Program-made: the position numbers and the translations under genes
Source: Vulcanimicrobiota bacterium
Lineage (GTDB): Bacteria; Pseudomonadota; Gammaproteobacteria; Xanthomonadales; Rhodanobacteraceae
Length of the DNA: 64,000 nucleotides
Reading direction: 5' to 3'
Assembly (NCBI GenBank): GCA_903970555.1
Contig: CAJCJD010000205.1
Span: forward strand, 1-64,000
The notes under the pieces: model-generated
What the model saw: the letters and a program-made list of their open reading frames with translations, nothing else
Database searches by the model: none
Told to the model about the DNA's origin: nothing
Shown here: in pieces, positions 4,442-37,883 of the stretch
Position numbering within the stretch: the stretch's first letter is position 1
How the letters are laid out: every line of letters starts with the position of its first letter

Positions 4442-5893
4442 ATGCCAAGCATACGCCTCGCCAATCTGATTGACGGTCGCCTGCAGGCGCCCCAGGACAA
4501 CCGCTGGCTCGACATCTACGAGCCCGCCACCGGCGCAGTGTTCGCAAGCTGCCCGGACTCCACCGCTGCCGATGTCGAAGCCGCCGTGCAGGCTGCACAA
4601 AAGGCCGCGCCGGGATGGGCGGCGATGCCTGCCGATGAACGTGCCCGCCTGCTCCATCGTCTCGCCGATCTGATCGACGCTCGCCTCGACGAATTTGCCG
4701 CGCTTGAATCGCGCGACAGCGGCAAGCCGGTGGCGCTCGCCAAACGTCTGGACATTCCGCGAGCCGTCTCCAATTTGCGCTTCTTTGCAGCAGCCATCGT
4801 GGCCTGGGATAGCGAATCGCACGCAATGGAAAGCGGCGCCATCAACTACACGTTGCGCCGTCCGCTCGGCGTGGTCGGCTGCATAAGTCCCTGGAATCTG
4901 CCGCTGTATCTCTTCACCTGGAAAATCGCGCCCGCCTTGGCCAGTGGCAATGCGGTAGTAGCCAAACCTTCTGAAATCACGCCGTGCACCGCTGCACTGC
5001 TCGGCGAACTGAGCATCGAAGCCGGATTTCCGCCTGGCGTGTTGAACATCGTGCAAGGACGCGGCCCGACCAGCGGGCAAGCCATCGTCGAGCATCCCGC
5101 CATCAAGGCGGTGTCCTTCACTGGCAGCACGCGTACCGGCGCCAGCATTGCCGCGGCGGCGGCTCCGCACTTCAAGAAAGTGTCGTTGGAACTGGGCGGC
5201 AAGAATCCCGCTATCGTTTTCGCGGATGCCGAGCTTTCCGACGAAAATCTCGACACCATTGTGCGCTCAGGCTTCGCCAATCAAGGCGAAATCTGCCTGT
5301 GCGGTTCGCGCTTGCTGGTGCAACGCTCGATCTACGACACGTTTCGCGAACGCTATCTGGCGAAGGTAAATGCCTTGCGCGTCGGCGACCCGCAGGACGC
5401 GAGCAGCGACCTAGGGGCACTGGTCTCGCGCGAACACTTCGACAAAGTGATGGGCTGCATCGAACAGGCACGCGAAGAAGGCGGCCGCATTCTTTCCGGC
5501 GGCGAAGCACTCACCGTCTCCGGTCGCTGCGCCGAAGGTTGGTTCGTTGCACCTACGGTGATCGACGGATTGCCGAATGATGCCGTCACCAACCAGCAGG
5601 AAATCTTTGGACCCGTCGTCACGCTGATCCCCTTCGACGACGAAGCCGATGCCTTGGCGATTGCCAATGGCACCACTTACGGTCTCGCCGCCTCGCTATG
5701 GACCACTGATCTTTCGCGCGCGCACCGCATGGCCGCACAACTGGAATTCGGCATCGTCTGGATCAACTGCTGGCTGCTGCGCGATTTGCGCACGCCATTC
5801 GGCGGCAGCAAGCAATCGGGCGTCGGTCGGGAAGGTGGCACGGAAGCGCTGCGCTTCTTCACCGAGCCACGCAATATTTGCATTCGTTACTGA
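4442..5893 (+). CDS. 2-aminomuconate-6-semialdehyde dehydrogenase (ALDH8-like)
   Basis: A 483-residue NAD-dependent aldehyde dehydrogenase. The catalytic glutamate is in LELGGKNP and the nucleophilic cysteine in FANQGEICLCGSR. The latter segment, together with the C-terminal WTTDLSRAHRM, WINCWLLRDL and PFGGSKQSGVGREGG, closely follows the ALDH8A1 / aminomuconic-semialdehyde dehydrogenase branch. That enzyme oxidises 2-aminomuconate semialdehyde in tryptophan breakdown through 3-hydroxyanthranilate. A 2-aminomuconate-deaminase-like gene lies two positions downstream and supports the assignment. The start at 4442 was chosen because the longer reading overlaps the SDR gene. Hydroxymuconic-semialdehyde dehydrogenase is the main alternative. 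Confidence 0.87.
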   Translation: MPSIRLANLIDGRLQAPQDNRWLDIYEPATGAVFASCPDSTAADVEAAVQAAQKAAPGWAAMPADERARLLHRLADLIDARLDEFAALESRDSGKPVALAKRLDIPRAVSNLRFFAAAIVAWDSESHAMESGAINYTLRRPLGVVGCISPWNLPLYLFTWKIAPALASGNAVVAKPSEITPCTAALLGELSIEAGFPPGVLNIVQGRGPTSGQAIVEHPAIKAVSFTGSTRTGASIAAAAAPHFKKVSLELGGKNPAIVFADAELSDENLDTIVRSGFANQGEICLCGSRLLVQRSIYDTFRERYLAKVNALRVGDPQDASSDLGALVSREHFDKVMGCIEQAREEGGRILSGGEALTVSGRCAEGWFVAPTVIDGLPNDAVTNQQEIFGPVVTLIPFDDEADALAIANGTTYGLAASLWTTDLSRAHRMAAQLEFGIVWINCWLLRDLRTPFGGSKQSGVGREGGTEALRFFTEPRNICIRY

Positions 5894-6572: not shown

Positions 6573-6997
6573 GTGGGGTGGTGCGCACCGATACGGCCCC
6601 CGCGCCGGTCGGCGCGTACCCCCATGCGCGACGTGTTGGCGACCTGTTGTTCCTCTCCGGTGTTGGCCCACGCCAACCTTTCACGAACGCAATTCCAGGC
6701 AATGTCCACGATGCCGATGGCCGACTGGTCAGCTACGACATCGAACAACAATGCCGGCAGGTTTTCGCGAATGTGCGTGCGGTGTTGGAAGCCAGCGGCG
6801 CGCGCTTGGAACAACTAGTCGATGTCACGGTATTTCTGACCGACATGACGCGCGACTTCCCCGTCTACAACCGTCTTTACGCCGAGTACTTCAAAGGCGT
6901 CGATGCCTGCCGCACTACGCTGGGCATCACGGCATTACCCACGCCGATTGCGATCGAGCTGAAGTGCATTGCTGCGTTGCCGTTTTCGGCACGTTGA
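6569..6997 (+). CDS. RidA-family deaminase, probable 2-aminomuconate deaminase
   Basis: This 142-residue protein has the YjgF/YER057c/UK114 (RidA) trimeric fold. The N-terminal APVGAYPHARRVGDLLFLSG and the LVDVTVFLTDM and PIAIELKCIA segments fit the aminomuconate-deaminase branch better than the short generic RidA (about 125-130 residues). The expected reaction is hydrolytic removal of ammonia from 2-aminomuconate to give 4-oxalocrotonate. The ATG overlaps the carbonic anhydrase stop by 4 nt. It is the last gene of the operon and a terminator follows. A general imine deaminase cannot be excluded. Confidence 0.78.
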   Translation: MSGVVRTDTAPAPVGAYPHARRVGDLLFLSGVGPRQPFTNAIPGNVHDADGRLVSYDIEQQCRQVFANVRAVLEASGARLEQLVDVTVFLTDMTRDFPVYNRLYAEYFKGVDACRTTLGITALPTPIAIELKCIAALPFSAR

Positions 6998-7004
6998 CAT
7001 TAAA

Positions 7005-7033
7005 AACCCCGGCTGGCAGAGCCAACCGGGGTT
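7005..7033. terminator. Hairpin terminator between convergent genes
   Basis: AACCCCGG at 7005-7012 pairs with CCGGGGTT at 7026-7033, with further TGGC/GCCA pairing inside and a 4-nt loop (one mismatch in the stem). It lies 8 nt after the RidA-like stop. A-rich sequence on the left gives a U-tract for transcripts arriving from the minus-strand gene at 7065, so it may work in both directions. Confidence 0.7.
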
Positions 7034-7064
7034 ATCGGTATACCGAACCGTATTACAAAAACGA

Positions 7065-7286
7065 TTACTTCCCGCCGGCCGTGCTGCTGGAAGCCGGAGC
7101 GGAGCTGCTGGCTGCCTTCTTGTGCGACTTGGTCGACGTGCTCGACTTCGCCTTGTGATGCTTGGCGGGAGCCGACGAGCTCGACGCAGCAGCCGGAGCG
7201 GCCGACGAAGAGTCCTGGGCGAACACCGAACCGGAAAGAGCCACACCCGCCACAAGCAGAGAAGCGATCGCAAGTTTACGCATCAT
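7065..7286 (-). CDS. Small exported Ser/Ala/Lys-rich protein
   Basis: A 73-residue protein with a clear signal peptide (RKLAIASLLVAGVALSGSVFA, cleavage after VFAQ or just before). The mature part is a low-complexity chain of Ser and Ala with Lys/His clusters (PAKHHKAKSS, TKSHKKAASS). The composition resembles short acid-shock-like or histone-like exported proteins, but I do not recognise a family. The start at 7286 was chosen because GAGG lies 9 nt upstream and a signal peptide follows at once; longer readings run into unlikely sequence. Confidence 0.7.
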   Translation of the reverse strand: MMRKLAIASLLVAGVALSGSVFAQDSSSAAPAAASSSSAPAKHHKAKSSTSTKSHKKAASSSAPASSSTAGGK

Positions 7287-7464
7287 GATCATGAGCCTCG
7301 AGATTTTGATTGCCACGGACCCGGCCGGAACCCGGCAAACGCGGGCGGGTGGCGGCACAACAATGCATCGGTCTCGGCATACCGGAACTGAACGGCGGTC
7401 AGAAATCATGAGCAATTGCTGACAAATTGAACAAGACATCCGCAACTACCTTCAAATGCTGTTT

Positions 7465-8253
7465 TTAGCGCAATTCGCCTAGACATTTTTGTAACAACTG
7501 GCGGATCGTGCCCTGCACCAAAGGCGCCTTTGTCGCGTCCCAGGCGAAGCTTTCCTCGTTCATGTATTGACACTGCGAGAGCTCCAGCTGCACGGCATGA
7601 ACGCCCTCCCTGGGTTGCCCGTAATGCCTGGTGATGTAGCCACCCTTGAAGCGACCATTGAGCACGAAGTCGTAGCGGGACTGAGCCTCCATGACATGAG
7701 TGAGTCCCCATTGGAGGTCGGGACTGCAGCTGGCCCCATCGGCCGTACCTAAATTGAAATCCGGCAGCCGCCCTTCGAACAGCATGGGCACGTGGCTACG
7801 AATGGAATGACCATCCCACAGCACTACGCGCCCGTGTTGCGCTTTCAGTCGCGCAATCTCCTGCGCCAGCGCCTGGTGATACGGACGCCACCAGGTCTCG
7901 GTTCGCTGATGGATCTCATCGCTATCGGGTTCCTGGCCGTCCAGATAGAGCGGCTCACCGTCGAAACCGATGGTCGGCGCCAGACCGGTTTCGCGCCGCC
8001 CCGGATACAGGGCGTGCCCATCGGCCGGACGATTGAGATCGATCACGTAGCGCGACGCCACCGGCTTGAGCACGCTGGCGCCCAGCTCTTGCGCAAGCGG
8101 CTCGTAAAGCTGGGCCACATGCCAATCGGTATCAGGCGAACGGCGCGCTGACGGGCGCAGGCGCTTGGCCAGCTCGTCGGGAAGGTAGCTGCCGTTATGC
8201 GGCAGGCTGATCAGCAACGGGACATTGCCGCGGGTAAGGGTGAAAGTTTCCAT
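7465..8253 (-). CDS. hutG: N-formylglutamate deformylase
   Basis: This 262-residue amidohydrolase of the N-formylglutamate family splits N-formyl-L-glutamate into formate and glutamate, the last step of the five-step histidine-degradation route. Hallmarks are SLPHNGSYLP, SRYVIDLNR, LYPGRRETGL, WWRPYHQAL, LWDGHSIRSHVP and DFNLGTADGASC, with His and Asp residues that bind the metal. The start at 8253 begins at METFTLTRGN, the usual N-terminus. No other hut gene lies nearby. It is 25 nt downstream of gor on the same strand, and the two may share a transcript. Confidence 0.9.
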   Translation of the reverse strand: METFTLTRGNVPLLISLPHNGSYLPDELAKRLRPSARRSPDTDWHVAQLYEPLAQELGASVLKPVASRYVIDLNRPADGHALYPGRRETGLAPTIGFDGEPLYLDGQEPDSDEIHQRTETWWRPYHQALAQEIARLKAQHGRVVLWDGHSIRSHVPMLFEGRLPDFNLGTADGASCSPDLQWGLTHVMEAQSRYDFVLNGRFKGGYITRHYGQPREGVHAVQLELSQCQYMNEESFAWDATKAPLVQGTIRQLLQKCLGELR

Positions 8254-34023: not shown

Positions 34024-34674
34024 TCAGGCTCGGGATAGCAATTTCCCACCCATGATCGCGTTGAGGGCCACCACGATGGCCACAGCGACCGCATGCATCA
34101 GCAAGTCCGTCGCGGCGGCATCGAAGTTGTGGCAGATCTCCAGCAGGCTTGCCGACGCCGAGGCGCTGGCAAGGCCGACGATGACCGCCGTAAGCACGGG
34201 ATGCAGCGGACAGGCGCGCCGCAGCAGCCAGATCAGCAGGCCAGACAGCGGAATCGAAAAGCTGATGATGAAGATAAAACAATCGTTGGCACCATGCAGA
34301 TCCAACACCGGCATGCCCGGAATGTGGGCGCGTAGACAACCCATGCCGCTGGCACCGATCCACAGCAAGGCGCTGGGCACCGGCACCCACGCCCAGCGGA
34401 TGGAGCGCCCGGGCACGGCGAGCGCAAACGCCGCCAGCGCCGCCGTGATCGCCGTAATCGCCCCACCGAAGGCCGCCCAGCCCAGATCGGGCGCCGCGTT
34501 CCAGCGGTGCACCATGGTGCTAGCCCCAAAATGCATGAACATCACCACGGCAATGACGGCCACCATCGACAACCAGCCGAGCGTACGCAGCCACGGCGGC
34601 GGCAGACGCCGTACTGGCGTCAGCTCCGCGCCGAGCACGTCGATCAGGGCTTCGTGGCGTGGTGCATCAGACAT
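34024..34674 (-). CDS. nrsF: NrsF-type (DUF1109) membrane anti-sigma factor
   Basis: A 216-residue integral membrane protein with six hydrophobic segments after a short cytoplasmic head (MSDAPRHEALIDVLGAELTPVRRL). It has the DUF1109 layout, including a loop cysteine in ASGMGCLRAHIPGMP and another in LLEICHNF, both facing the periplasm by prediction. NrsF proteins hold SigF-type ECF factors at the membrane and release them on oxidative or hypochlorite stress in other proteobacteria. It starts 5 nt after the sigma stop. Confidence 0.88.
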   Translation of the reverse strand: MSDAPRHEALIDVLGAELTPVRRLPPPWLRTLGWLSMVAVIAVVMFMHFGASTMVHRWNAAPDLGWAAFGGAITAITAALAAFALAVPGRSIRWAWVPVPSALLWIGASGMGCLRAHIPGMPVLDLHGANDCFIFIISFSIPLSGLLIWLLRRACPLHPVLTAVIVGLASASASASLLEICHNFDAAATDLLMHAVAVAIVVALNAIMGGKLLSRA

Positions 34675-34679
34675 TGGGA

Positions 34680-35204
34680 TCAGGAACCTCCATGCAGTCG
34701 ATCGCGCAGCGACTTCAGCGCGCGATGCAAATTCACTTTCAGCGCTCCGGTATTGCGACCGGTAACGTCCGCCGCCTCGGCTAGCGAGCGCTCTTTCAAG
34801 CCAAGCTGCTCGACGGCCTCACGCTGGCCCGGCGGCAAGGTTTCGATGGCCTCGCGCAAACGCCGCGCCTCTTGCTCGCGTTCGGCACCGGCGCTGGCGT
34901 CGTCGCGTTCGGGGTGACTGTCGAGCGCGAATTCATCGTGCACCTCGCGCCGGTCGCGGCGCCCCTGGCTGCGCAAGATATCGATGGCGCGGCGGCTGGC
35001 GATGGCCGATAGCCACGCATCGTAAGAACGCGATGGATCGAATGTGTGCCGCACCCGATGCACGGTGAGCAGCGTTTCTTGCACCACGTCATCCAACGCA
35101 TCCATCGCTACGCCTTGCCGCCTTGCCACGGCGCGGATCAGCCCGACCGAGTCGGTCAACAAGCGCGCATACGCACGCTGGTCGCCCGCTTGCGCGGCGG
35201 CCAT
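34680..35204 (-). CDS. SigF-type ECF RNA polymerase sigma factor
   Basis: A sigma factor of about 174 residues from ATG 35204. Region 2 runs LIRAVARRQGVAMDALDDVVQETLLTVHRVRHTFDPSRSYDAWLSAIASRRAID with the linker after it; region 4 holds LPPGQREAVEQLGLKERSLAEAADVTG and GALKVNLHRALKSL. The reading frame stays open to 35357, but a promoter-like GTAACC-N16-CGAA spans 35275-35250, inside any longer version, so the start must lie downstream of it. It is followed after 5 nt by nrsF. The pair resembles Caulobacter SigF-NrsF. Confidence 0.87.
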   Translation of the reverse strand: MAAAQAGDQRAYARLLTDSVGLIRAVARRQGVAMDALDDVVQETLLTVHRVRHTFDPSRSYDAWLSAIASRRAIDILRSQGRRDRREVHDEFALDSHPERDDASAGAEREQEARRLREAIETLPPGQREAVEQLGLKERSLAEAADVTGRNTGALKVNLHRALKSLRDRLHGGS

Positions 35205-35249
35205 CCAGGCCGCCCGCTGCTGGTCAGCCTGCTCGCTGGTGCTGGTGGA

Positions 35250-35275
35250 TTCGATCGGCACAGCCTTATGGTTAC
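35250..35275 (-). promoter_or_regulatory. SigF-type promoter for the sigma-nrsF operon
   Basis: On the minus strand GTAACC (35275-35270), exactly 16 nt, then CGAA (35253-35250). This equals the SigF-dependent consensus I recall from Caulobacter (GTAACC-N16-CGAA). The same sequence and spacing stand before dipZ on the other strand. Predicted transcription starts about 7 nt after CGAA, some 40 nt before ATG 35204. Confidence 0.75.
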
Positions 35276-35319
35276 CTGTAGCCCTACGCAATGGCTGGCG
35301 TAGTAGTACGCACGGGCCA

Positions 35320-35347
35320 CTAAAGGTCAAGGTGCTAAAGGTCAAGG
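35320..35347. repeat. Tandem CTAAAGGTCAAGG direct repeat
   Basis: CTAAAGGTCAAGG occurs at 35320-35332 and again at 35335-35347, a 15-nt period, between the two divergent SigF-type promoters. It may be a binding site for a second regulator. The octamer AAAGGTCA also occurs twice (inverted orientation) at 55304-55338. Confidence 0.6.
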
Positions 35348-35439
35348 ATGGCAACACAGTCGATCCGCCGCAGCGTCTATAGGGGTGAATTCGCTGCGTC
35401 CGGGGTGCGGGTTACTTCGTACACACTGTCAAACTGCAA

Positions 35440-35465
35440 GTAACCACAACGCAGTCCGCTGCGAA
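35440..35465 (+). promoter_or_regulatory. SigF-type promoter for dipZ-msrB
   Basis: GTAACC at 35440-35445, 16 nt, CGAA at 35462-35465, identical in elements and spacing to the promoter of the sigma gene. It predicts transcription from about 35472, 25 nt before the dipZ ATG. The -35 region lies in one arm of GTTACTT/AAGTAAC (35411-35417 with 35438-35444). Confidence 0.75.
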
Positions 35466-35496
35466 TAGCCATCAGAACCCGTTAACGAGCCGACTC

Positions 35497-37221
35497 ATGA
35501 TCCTGTTGATCCTCGCCTTCCTCGGCGGCGTGCTGACGATTCTCAGCCCGTGCATCCTGCCCGTTTTGCCATTCGTGTTCGCACGTGCGGATCGACCTTT
35601 TGCGCGCAATGGCCTGCCGATGCTGATTGGCATGGCGCTGACCTTCGCGCTGGTGGCGACGCTGGCTGCGGTGGGCGGTGGCTGGGCGGTGCGTGCAAAC
35701 CAGTATGGGCGCTATATCGCATTGGTCGTGCTGGCCGTTCTCGGTATCACGCTACTTTCTTCGCACTTTGCCGAATGGATCAGCCGCCCATTTGTGAAGC
35801 TTGGCAATCGCCTGTCCGCGCATTCCGATGCACAAGCCGATTCGCCCTGGTCAGCGGCAGGTTTGGGCGTTGCGACAGGTTTGCTGTGGGCGCCTTGCGC
35901 AGGACCGATTCTCGGCCTGTTGCTGACCGGTGCTGCACTCAAAGGCGCGAGCGTGCAAACCACGCTGCTGTTGCTTACCTATGCCGGTGGCGCGGCGGTC
36001 TCGCTTGCGCTTGCACTGCTGGTCGGAGGCCGGGTGTTTTCCGTGATGAAGCGTTCGCTCGGCGCTGGCGAATGGGTACGACGCGTACTGGGTGTGTTGG
36101 TGCTGTGCGGTGTAGTCGCCATTGCGTTGGGTGCGGACACCGGTTTGTTGACGCGCGTATCGCTGGCCAGCACCAGCAGCGTGGAGCAGAAGCTGATCGA
36201 TGCCATACGCCCCGCAACCGCGTCCACTGCACCGGCTCCGAAAGCTGGCGCCACATTGCCGATCGAAGGTGAACTGCCCGCGCTGAGCGGCGCCACGCAG
36301 TGGTTCAACAGTTCGCCACTGACGCCCGAATCGCTACGCGGCAAAGTGGTGGTTGTCGATTTCTGGACTTATTCCTGCATCAACTGCATCCGCACGCTGC
36401 CCTATGTGAAGGCATGGGCAGAGAAATACCGTGATCACGGCCTGGTCGTAATAGGCGTGCATTCGCCTGAGTTCGCGTTCGAGAAAGATCCTGACAACGT
36501 CGCCAAGGCGATCAAGGATTTCGGCATCACCTATCCGGTGGCGGTGGATGACAACTACGCCATCTGGCAAGCCTTCAACAACGAATACTGGCCGGCGCAC
36601 TACTTCATCGACGCAAAAGGCCAGATTCGCTCTCACCACTTCGGCGAAGGCGACTATGCCGGCAGCGAAGACATGATCCGCCGCTTGCTGACCGATGCCG
36701 GCTACAAGGATCTACCGGGCGGTTACGTGCAACCGGGTGCATCGGGTGCGGAAGCTGCCGTCTCCAGCGATACGAATCGCTCGCCGGAAACCTACGTGGG
36801 TTATGCGCGCGGAGAGAATTTCGCAGGTGGCCAGATTGCGCACGACGACAGCTTTGACTATCACGCACCGGATGCGCTGCAGGCCAACCAATGGGCCTTC
36901 AACGGTCGCTGGACCGTACATGGCGAGAACGCTTCTCTCGACAAGCCCGGCGGCAGCATCGTCTATCGCTTCCGTGGTCGCGATCTGCATCTGGTGTTGG
37001 GCCCTGGCATGGATGGTAAGCCGGTACGTTTCCGCATCACTCTCGATGGCAAACCACCTGGCGCGGACCACGGTGCAGATACCGATGCAGACGGCAACGG
37101 CGTCGTCACCGAACAGCGTCTTTACCAACTGGTGCGCCAGACACACGGTACGGGTGAACGCGTTTTTGAAATCACTTTCCTTGATCCGGACGTGCGCGCC
37201 TACGCCTTCACCTTTGGTTGA
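35497..37221 (+). CDS. dipZ: DipZ: CcdA-type membrane domain, thioredoxin domain and C-terminal beta domain
   Basis: A 574-residue fusion. Residues 1-215 form a six-segment CcdA/DsbD-beta-like electron carrier with cysteines in LSPCILPVLPF and WAPCAGPILG. Residues about 265-410 are a periplasmic TlpA-like thioredoxin domain with the active site SCINC (Cys294, Cys297) and NNEYWPAHYFID. The rest (about 430-574) is a beta-rich domain like that of mycobacterial DipZ. It should carry reducing power from cytoplasmic thioredoxin to periplasmic clients. msrB follows by 35 nt and is the obvious client. It has its own SigF-type promoter. Confidence 0.92.
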   Translation: MILLILAFLGGVLTILSPCILPVLPFVFARADRPFARNGLPMLIGMALTFALVATLAAVGGGWAVRANQYGRYIALVVLAVLGITLLSSHFAEWISRPFVKLGNRLSAHSDAQADSPWSAAGLGVATGLLWAPCAGPILGLLLTGAALKGASVQTTLLLLTYAGGAAVSLALALLVGGRVFSVMKRSLGAGEWVRRVLGVLVLCGVVAIALGADTGLLTRVSLASTSSVEQKLIDAIRPATASTAPAPKAGATLPIEGELPALSGATQWFNSSPLTPESLRGKVVVVDFWTYSCINCIRTLPYVKAWAEKYRDHGLVVIGVHSPEFAFEKDPDNVAKAIKDFGITYPVAVDDNYAIWQAFNNEYWPAHYFIDAKGQIRSHHFGEGDYAGSEDMIRRLLTDAGYKDLPGGYVQPGASGAEAAVSSDTNRSPETYVGYARGENFAGGQIAHDDSFDYHAPDALQANQWAFNGRWTVHGENASLDKPGGSIVYRFRGRDLHLVLGPGMDGKPVRFRITLDGKPPGADHGADTDADGNGVVTEQRLYQLVRQTHGTGERVFEITFLDPDVRAYAFTFG

Positions 37222-37256
37222 GCGCCAAAGCACGACACGCATAGCGGGAGATTTAT

Positions 37257-37883
37257 ATGACATCCGTAACGCATGACAAGACGATGGATCGCCGCCGATT
37301 CCTGTTCGCGGCACTCGGTGGCGGCGCAGCGCTGGCAATCGGTGGTGTATCGGCTGCGCGCTTGTTTGGCGCGAACGGCGGTGGCGCCATGGCGGCGACA
37401 GCTGCGACAACAAGCACGGCCCCGCAGTTGCTGCTGGAATGTTTCGCTGACGATGACGGCCATAATCTGGGGCCGTGCTACGTCCGCAAGCTGCTATTGA
37501 CCGATGCGCAATGGCACGCGCGTCTTTCTGATGCGGCCTTCAGTGTCATGCGCCGCGCCGGCACGGAGATCGCTTTCAGCGGCCCTCACGAAAAGCCCAA
37601 CAGCAAGGGGATGTATCGATGCGCCGGCTGCGACACGGCCTTGTTCGATGCGGCGACGCAATTCGACTCCGGCACGGGTTGGCCGAGTTTCTGGAAACCA
37701 ATCGCCAAGCAGAACGTGATCGAAATAAACGACACCAGTTTCGGCATGACCCGCACAGCAATCAGCTGCGCCGGCTGCGATAGCCATCTGGGACACGTAT
37801 TCGATGACGGTCCACAACCAACTGGCTTGCGCTATTGCATGAACTCCGTGGCGATGCGCTTCGTCGCGTTCCGCACGAGCTGA
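37257..37883 (+). CDS. msrB: Tat-exported peptide-methionine (R)-S-oxide reductase
   Basis: A 208-residue MsrB with a twin-arginine signal (MDRRRFLFAALGGGAALAIGG), so it acts in the periplasm, not in the cytoplasm like common MsrB. The catalytic Cys is in LRYCMNSVAMRF. The structural zinc is held by two CAGC pairs (YRCAGCDTAL and ISCAGCDSHLGHVFDDGP). GTGWPSFWKP is the usual substrate loop. It reduces methionine-R-sulfoxide in proteins. It is cotranscribed with dipZ, which can supply electrons, and convergent with nadD (8-nt gap). Confidence 0.95.
   Translation: MTSVTHDKTMDRRRFLFAALGGGAALAIGGVSAARLFGANGGGAMAATAATTSTAPQLLLECFADDDGHNLGPCYVRKLLLTDAQWHARLSDAAFSVMRRAGTEIAFSGPHEKPNSKGMYRCAGCDTALFDAATQFDSGTGWPSFWKPIAKQNVIEINDTSFGMTRTAISCAGCDSHLGHVFDDGPQPTGLRYCMNSVAMRFVAFRTS

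What the first reader, a model, noticed from the sequence alone, without database searches (positions are those of the whole stretch)
34024..37883. Self-contained ECF/NrsF - DipZ - MsrB module with two identical GTAACC-N16-CGAA promoters
Seen: an ECF sigma gene and DUF1109/NrsF gene are divergent from dipZ and a Tat-exported msrB. Both transcripts start behind GTAACC, exactly 16 nt, CGAA (35275-35250 on minus; 35440-35465 on plus). No other correctly spaced copy was noticed in intergenic sequence of the window. Known, from memory: Caulobacter SigF uses this consensus and is restrained by NrsF; in another proteobacterium SigF-NrsF answers hypochlorite and drives a periplasmic methionine-sulfoxide reductase (YedY/MsrP type). 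Inference: this is a one-locus periplasmic protein-repair response in which DipZ supplies the electrons directly to an exported MsrB, replacing the MsrP route.
Basis: partly seen in the sequence, partly recalled or inferred. Interest (0 to 1): 0.82.

Follow-up and report, generated by a model that had tools for sequence, protein, structure and literature searches.

The report
Envelope methionine-repair regulon in Dyella
A bacterial stress switch (a sigma factor and its membrane inhibitor) seems to control, from one shared type of promoter, a small scattered set of genes that repair oxidised methionine outside the inner membrane; the kind of system is known, but this version with its DipZ branch and regulon appears undescribed.

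Summary
The genes are as described: a SigF-like ECF sigma factor, an NrsF-type anti-sigma, and divergently DipZ (CcdA-like membrane domain plus thioredoxin domain) and a Tat-type MsrB. That copy has a counterpart upstream of the ECF gene in 39 of 39 loci, window included. The motif is not enriched genome-wide (181 vs 194 reversed in 16 genomes); conserved position is the evidence.

'One-locus' is wrong. The same promoter type precedes an exported MsrA, a divergent CcdA / exported thioredoxin pair and a catalase-like protein in the same genome. The msrA site is in 28 of 28 module-bearing and 0 of 13 module-less genomes examined. 'Replacing MsrP' is plausible: 13 of 16 genus genomes showed no PF00174 protein. 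'DipZ directly to MsrB' is untested and has a co-regulated rival. Bradyrhizobium EcfF-OsrA already controls Msr enzymes plus a CcdA/Trx-like pair, so this is a new variant of a known kind. Nothing here measures expression, inducer or electron flow.

The parts
34024..34674 (-). nrsF: NrsF/DUF1109-type anti-sigma factor, divergent subtype
   Evidence: PF06532 E 1.7e-20, 74.2 bits; NCBIfam NrsF equivalog only 19.5 of 300 bits; C113 and C132 in 39 of 40 rows, the 40th presumably the fragment L087 that ends near residue 96
34680..35261 (-). SigF-like ECF sigma factor gene; GTG start at 35261-35259
   Evidence: Sigma70_r2 and Sigma70_r4_2; GTG, TTG or ATG at this exact place in 32 of 39 loci
   Evidence: counterpart in 3 of 39 loci
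35300..35345 (-). possible housekeeping (sigma70-like) promoter TTGACC in the ECF leader, partly duplicated in this window (approximate bounds)
   Evidence: TTGAC in 37 of 39 leaders against a mean of 3.0 in 500 shuffles, maximum 8; function inferred
35390..35415 (-).
   Evidence: exact match; counterpart in 39 of 39 family loci and 79 of 80 named loci, the other cut by a contig end
35440..35465 (+). GTAACC-N16-CGAA promoter of dipZ-msrB
   Evidence: exact match; divergent counterpart within 260 nt in 32 of 39 loci, within 480 nt in 71 of 80 named loci
35497..37221 (+). dipZ: CcdA-like membrane domain, thioredoxin domain (CINC) and C-terminal domain
   Evidence: DsbD_TM, Redoxin, Thioredoxin_10; PDB entries 5cyy and 2hyx named DipZ match residues 242-520; C19, C134, C294, C297 in 35 of 35
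37257..37883 (+). msrB: Tat-type exported methionine-R-sulfoxide reductase
   Evidence: SelR E 5.6e-46; TIGR00357 above cut-off; C194 and the four CxxC cysteines in 38 of 38

Best explanation
The ECF-NrsF pair is a SigF/ECF16-type switch for an extracytoplasmic oxidant response of Rhodanobacteraceae. Shown by sequence: one promoter type stands before ecf-nrsF, dipZ-msrB, an exported (lipobox) msrA, ccdA, an exported thioredoxin gene and a catalase-like protein with an N-terminal hydrophobic stretch. Inferred: an oxidant alters NrsF (probably at the Cys113/Cys132 loop), the sigma factor is freed, MsrA and MsrB repair S- and R-Met-sulfoxide in the envelope, and electrons cross the membrane through DipZ and/or CcdA plus thioredoxin. 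A basal sigma70-like promoter in the ECF leader would keep some sigma and NrsF present beforehand (inferred).
For: Subtype module in 38 of 99 relatives searched, all in the same family, found with the NrsF model; msrB seen in 37 of 38 (the other contig ends inside dipZ), dipZ in 34 of 38. 80 named loci (at least 25 are the same contigs): ECF 80, msrB 74, dipZ 71, ECF promoter 79, divergent promoter 71 of 80. ECF promoter 39 of 39, reversed control 0. msrA promoter 28 of 30, reversed control 0 of 30; with 11 further loci, 28 of 28 module-bearing and 0 of 13 module-less genomes examined. trx promoter 12 of 16 with N16 plus 3 with N15; ccdA promoter 16 of 16. Catalase-like gene 14 of 16 loci, reversed control 0. 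Methylobacterium plasmid NZ_CP099614 has MXKDX-ECF-NrsF-MsrB-MsrA-b561-molybdoenzyme in one run, with the exact motif before the MXKDX and the msrB gene. Bradyrhizobium precedent (PMC3420878, passages).
Against: No expression data. The motif alone is not enriched genome-wide. Three of 39 loci (L040, L044, L063) showed no divergent site. Both copies of the catalase-like gene in G007 lack the site and G003 showed no such gene. One of 16 genus thioredoxin loci (L132) and one of five CcdA/thioredoxin loci outside the genus (L241) lack it. Two genus genomes also carry canonical NrsF copies with the same motif nearby, so another sigma factor could read these promoters. Inducer and electron route are unknown.
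Confidence: 0.78

Rival explanations
1. One reading: a one-locus response in which DipZ alone passes electrons directly to MsrB.
For: dipZ and msrB lie together in 34 of 38 relatives (in L073 the contig ends before msrB); MsrB has Thr, not Cys, at the usual resolving position (recalled) in 73 of 74 named loci, so direct reduction by a thioredoxin domain is conceivable.
Against: Apparently co-regulated ccdA/trx and msrA at other loci. Four relatives keep msrB divergent from the sigma gene without dipZ there; of these G038 has no DipZ match at E<=1e-40, the other three only partial ones.
Confidence: 0.15
2. The regulon answers mainly to metals or thiol stress (as Caulobacter SigF to chromate and cadmium); Msr repair is one output of a general thiol-redox response.
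For: Caulobacter SigF is activated by dichromate and cadmium, and NrsF cysteines matter (PMC3511200, passages and one section); one relative has a DUF2282/DUF692-like pair after nrsF (L061, read by eye).
Against: The recurrent targets found are two Msr enzymes, their likely reductants and a catalase-like protein, not metal export.
Confidence: 0.25
3. The motif copies are chance matches in GC-rich DNA.
For: About 11 exact hits per genome, no more than for the reversed pattern; of 40 other genus hits looked at, 29 fall inside an open frame by a crude ORF call.
Against: Position kept in 39 of 39, 28 of 28 and 16 of 16 orthologous upstream regions with diverged spacers; reversed control 0 in the ECF, msrA and trx regions; 138 vs 2 hits in the 80 named loci.
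Confidence: 0.02

Closest known systems
Bradyrhizobium japonicum EcfF-OsrA regulon (ECF16; PMC3420878, abstract and passages)
   Same: ECF with DUF1109 anti-sigma, autoregulated GTAAC...CG promoter; controls three Met-sulfoxide reductases plus Bll1027/Bll1026 (DsbD-core protein and membrane-anchored periplasmic thioredoxin), which its authors propose as the electron route
   Different: No DipZ in the passages I read; msr genes not at the sigma locus; spacer N14-15; canonical cysteines C129/C179
Azospira SigF-NrsF with YedYZ and MrpX (seen through passages of PMC4623255); Brucella BcrS-AbcS with BcrXQP (PMC8315932, passages)
   Same: NrsF-family switch, exported Met-sulfoxide repair, and in Brucella a GTAAC...CGAA promoter; a Met-rich ORF also follows nrsF in 19 of 80 relatives here
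   Different: Here thiol enzymes MsrA and MsrB with DipZ and CcdA/Trx; no MsrP at the locus; I saw no Met-rich gene after nrsF in the window
Caulobacter SigF-NrsF (PMC3511200, passages and one section)
   Same: Promoter GTAACC-N16-CGAA; sigma gene with nrsF as second gene
   Different: Targets are DUF2282/DUF692/DUF2063 operons and a YedY gene; its microarrays saw no change of msrA homologues
Haemophilus influenzae RpoE2-controlled msrAB with CcdA and thioredoxin (PMC9404787, passages)
   Same: ECF-controlled periplasmic thiol Msr, hypochlorite-induced, with CcdA and an exported thioredoxin in the operon
   Different: Other sigma factor; fused MsrAB; one operon; no DipZ in the passages read
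Mycobacterium tuberculosis DipZ (5cyy, 2hyx; organism recalled)
   Same: Sequence match over the thioredoxin part and beyond, residues 242-520
   Different: I saw nothing that links it to MsrB

Membership tests
ECF16 / SigF-NrsF systems | ECF sigma with regions 2 and 4 | tested here: met
ECF16 / SigF-NrsF systems | cognate NrsF/DUF1109 anti-sigma gene directly downstream | tested here: met
   PF06532 74.2 bits vs 26.8; 5-nt gap after the sigma gene. That it binds this sigma factor is not tested
ECF16 / SigF-NrsF systems | autoregulated promoter (t)GTAACc-N16-CGAA | tested here: met
   sequence and conservation only; consensus as quoted in PMC3420878
ECF16 / SigF-NrsF systems | two conserved NrsF cysteines equivalent to Caulobacter C131 and C181 | tested here: inconclusive
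   C132 aligns with the first conserved cysteine of canonical copies and is invariant; C181 is in 31 of 40 rows and sits one column off the canonical second one; C113 is invariant here and has no cysteine at that place in the four canonical copies aligned
NCBIfam NF042994 NrsF equivalog | score above 300 bits | tested here: not met
   19.5 bits
SigF-MsrP/Q-MrpX (Azospira/Brucella) system | msrP (PF00174) under the sigma factor | tested here: not met
   none at the locus; PF00174 in 3 of 16 genus genomes; own-genome copy on contig C95, probably foreign
Thiol Msr fed by CcdA/thioredoxin across the membrane | exported Msr plus membrane and exported thiol carriers under one regulator | tested here: met
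   by sequence and promoter only; export signals read by eye
Thiol Msr fed by CcdA/thioredoxin across the membrane | electron transfer to Msr | not testable with these tools
   needs biochemistry
DipZ | DsbD_TM, thioredoxin and C-terminal domain with two cysteine pairs | tested here: met

The most novel reading that the evidence does not exclude
A family-wide, multi-locus SigF-type regulon that splits Met-sulfoxide repair into separately encoded exported MsrA and MsrB, feeds them by two parallel co-regulated thiol relays (fused DipZ; CcdA plus thioredoxin), adds a catalase-like peroxidase, dispenses with MsrP, and senses through a relocated cysteine pair (Cys113/Cys132, one periplasmic loop) in a divergent NrsF subtype.
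Probability: 0.4. Interest if true: 0.62.

Novelty: new variant of a known kind. Interest (0 to 1): 0.5.

Why it matters
It gives soil Dyella and Rhodanobacter a concrete, testable envelope-repair regulon, suggests that NrsF-type switches pair with thiol Msr enzymes in a whole family and not only with molybdenum MsrP, and offers natural variants (with and without dipZ, with and without Met-rich proteins) to ask which electron route feeds which reductase.

Tried and rejected
Genome-wide motif counting as proof: rejected, the reversed pattern is as frequent. The Met-rich/b561/YedY-like operon on contig C95 (motif at 1888) as evidence that this genome also has the MsrP route: rejected as unsafe; its b561 has no match at E<=1e-20 in 60 relatives and its best plasmid match is 87% identical, in Paraburkholderia, so contamination or recent transfer. 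MsrB N-terminal Cys62/Cys74 pair as the contact to DipZ: not supported; present in 34 of 38 of the first set but by pattern in 39 of 74 named loci, with no association with dipZ in the locus (Fisher p 0.41). A second msrA (contig C9) has the motif about 240 nt upstream; not tested in relatives, left open. The ten paper searches listed no report of DipZ with MsrB under an NrsF-type switch; the only paper holding both 'DipZ' and 'methionine sulfoxide' (PMC8396259) was seen as a listing only. The library lacks most subscription papers and the original Azospira paper. No structure prediction was run.
Full report
What is there. The window carries nrsF (34024-34674, -), an ECF sigma gene (34680-35261, -), and divergently dipZ (35497-37221, +) and msrB (37257-37883, +). 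Pfam supports all four. The window is the first 64 kb of a 79-kb contig in a 247-contig draft, 91.7% complete, 3.4% contaminated.

The motif. GTAACC-N16-CGAA occurs three times in the window, all here: 35275-35250 (-), 35415-35390 (-), 35440-35465 (+). The first spans the GTG start codon of the ECF gene. Across 39 loci (window plus 38 relatives), a GTAAC-N17-CGAA site starts 101-156 nt upstream of the ECF start in all 39 (32 strict GTAACC), with none for the reversed pattern; the start-overlapping site is in 3. A divergent site within 260 nt is in 32 of 39; L050, L068, L070 and L075 have it further out; L040, L044 and L063 show none (L044 was looked at beyond 260 nt only for strict GTAACC). 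So the real pair is most likely 35415-35390 and 35440-35465, back to back.

Is it more than chance? Not by counting alone: 9 exact hits against 12 reversed in the own genome, 181 against 194 in 16 genus genomes (my sums). By position it is: the spacers diverge while the place is kept. In the 80 named loci (817 kb) there are 138 exact hits against 2 reversed.

Survey. PF06532 hits 47 of 100 genomes, the own one included. I fetched regions around the hits except two weak ones and compared them with the four window proteins. The window's subtype is in 38 of 99 relatives, all in the same family, including 15 of 15 genus mates searched; msrB is seen in 37 of 38 (L073 ends inside dipZ), dipZ in 34 of 38 (absent in L061, L064, L066, L067, where msrB itself is divergent from the sigma gene). 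A scan of named genomes kept the best 80 of 152 loci, titled Dyella, Rhodanobacter, Frateuria, Fulvimonas or broader names such as Lysobacterales; ECF 80, msrB 74, dipZ 71, ECF promoter 79, divergent promoter 71, Met-rich ORF after nrsF 19 (18 with a motif copy) of 80. L203 and L209 have the sigma pair without dipZ or msrB; L182, L208, L216, L220 and L222 are cut near contig ends.

The regulon is not one locus. Among the own-genome hits, one starts 61 nt before a lipobox MsrA (C158:17758; PF01625). In relatives this site is in 28 of 30 MsrA loci. The two misses, G025 and G026, lack the module; 11 more MsrA loci from module-less genomes also lack it, so 28 of 28 against 0 of 13 examined. The module-less copies are more distant (38-67% identity) and 10 of 23 such genomes were not examined, so orthology there is less sure. 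Another hit starts 59 nt before an exported thioredoxin gene (C161:4844-4819, -; WCPTC; PF00085 40.7 bits). Divergent from it is a CcdA-like gene (C161:4951-5676, +; DsbD_TM) with GTAACT-N16-CGAA at 4860-4885. In the 16 genus loci the thioredoxin site is N16 in 12, N15 in 3, absent in 1; the ccdA site is in 16 of 16. Outside the genus, 5 of 35 genomes searched, each module-bearing, had a CcdA/thioredoxin pair; 4 of these 5 carry the motif (rough query, see Tried and rejected). Reading around 40 other hits from seven genus genomes pointed to a catalase-like protein (PF00199) with an N-terminal hydrophobic stretch: site in 14 of 16 loci of 15 genomes, including the own genome with GTAACG (C143:6637-6612, -), reversed control 0.

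MsrP. PF00174 proteins were found in 3 of 16 genus genomes. The own-genome one is on contig C95 (3,793 bases) with a Met-rich gene, a b561 and the same motif. Its b561 has no match in 60 relatives and is 87% identical to one in Paraburkholderia, so I do not count it as resident.

How it probably works. Shown: gene content, promoter positions, conserved cysteines. DipZ has both cysteine pairs in 35 of 35. Inferred: membrane thiol relays feed MsrA and MsrB. Two relays appear co-regulated, so the electron route to MsrB is open. NrsF keeps Cys132 (the place of the first conserved cysteine of canonical copies) but has a second invariant Cys113 in what I take to be the same periplasmic loop, while Cys181 is variable. 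The Methylobacterium homologue keeps the 113/132-type pair without a Cys at the third place (by eye). That the sensor pair has moved is a hypothesis; the side of the loop is inferred from the six-helix topology reported for relatives (passages).

A second promoter. The ECF leader has TTGAC 57-81 nt before the ECF start in 37 of 39 loci (shuffles: mean 3.0, maximum 8); in 31 of 39 a box I allowed as -10-like (such as CTAGAT or CTACTA) follows at sigma70-like distance. I read it as a basal housekeeping promoter; the Brucella authors also suggest that another sigma factor drives basal bcrS (PMC8315932, passage).

Known work. Caulobacter promoter and NrsF cysteines: PMC3511200 (passages and one section). 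Bradyrhizobium EcfF-OsrA: PMC3420878 (abstract and passages); this is the closest precedent and lowers the novelty. Brucella BcrS-AbcS: PMC8315932 (abstract lines and passages). Azospira through PMC4623255 (passages), which also mentions msrA and msrB predicted to be exported in two perchlorate islands. H. influenzae: PMC9404787 (passages). S. meliloti RpoE7: PMC6180224 (passages). Streptococcal MsrAB with CcdA and thioredoxin-fold lipoproteins: search listing only. Methylobacterium plasmid with MXKDX, sigma, NrsF, MsrB, MsrA, b561 and a molybdoenzyme in one run: with exact motifs before the MXKDX and msrB genes.

Verdict. Ordinary in kind, well supported in extent, new in combination as far as my searches reach.

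Noticed in passing
window 35300-35345 (-): TTGAC element in the ECF leader, kept in 37 of 39 loci; in this window it is partly duplicated (CCTTGACCTTTAG twice).
   Followed up: partly
L171, L173, L218, L219 and 15 other named loci, just after nrsF: Exported Met-rich repeat proteins (MKHDS/MKKDA type); 18 of 19 have a GTAAC-N17-CGAA copy in the stretch after nrsF.
   Followed up: partly
L061, about 6652-7905: A DUF2282/DUF692-like (bufferin-type, recognised by eye) pair follows nrsF behind a motif copy.
   Followed up: no
L334-L344; L335 and L336 lie on the contigs of canonical nrsF copies: Exported 349-aa beta-propeller-like protein with a motif copy roughly 85-121 nt upstream: N16 in 4 of 11 loci, N15-17 in 10 of 11; no match in the own genome at E<=1e-60.
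   Followed up: partly
L082, L083 (G011, G007): Two genus genomes carry three canonical nrsF copies each besides the window's subtype, with the same motif nearby: possible cross-talk.
   Followed up: no
L088 (contig C95): Met-rich gene, b561 and contig-end YedY-like gene behind the motif; probable contaminant or recent transfer.
   Followed up: partly
L278, about 1299-2027: DUF1223 exported protein behind a motif copy in one genus genome.
   Followed up: no
L001 (contig C9): A second, apparently cytoplasmic msrA has the exact motif about 240 nt upstream.
   Followed up: no
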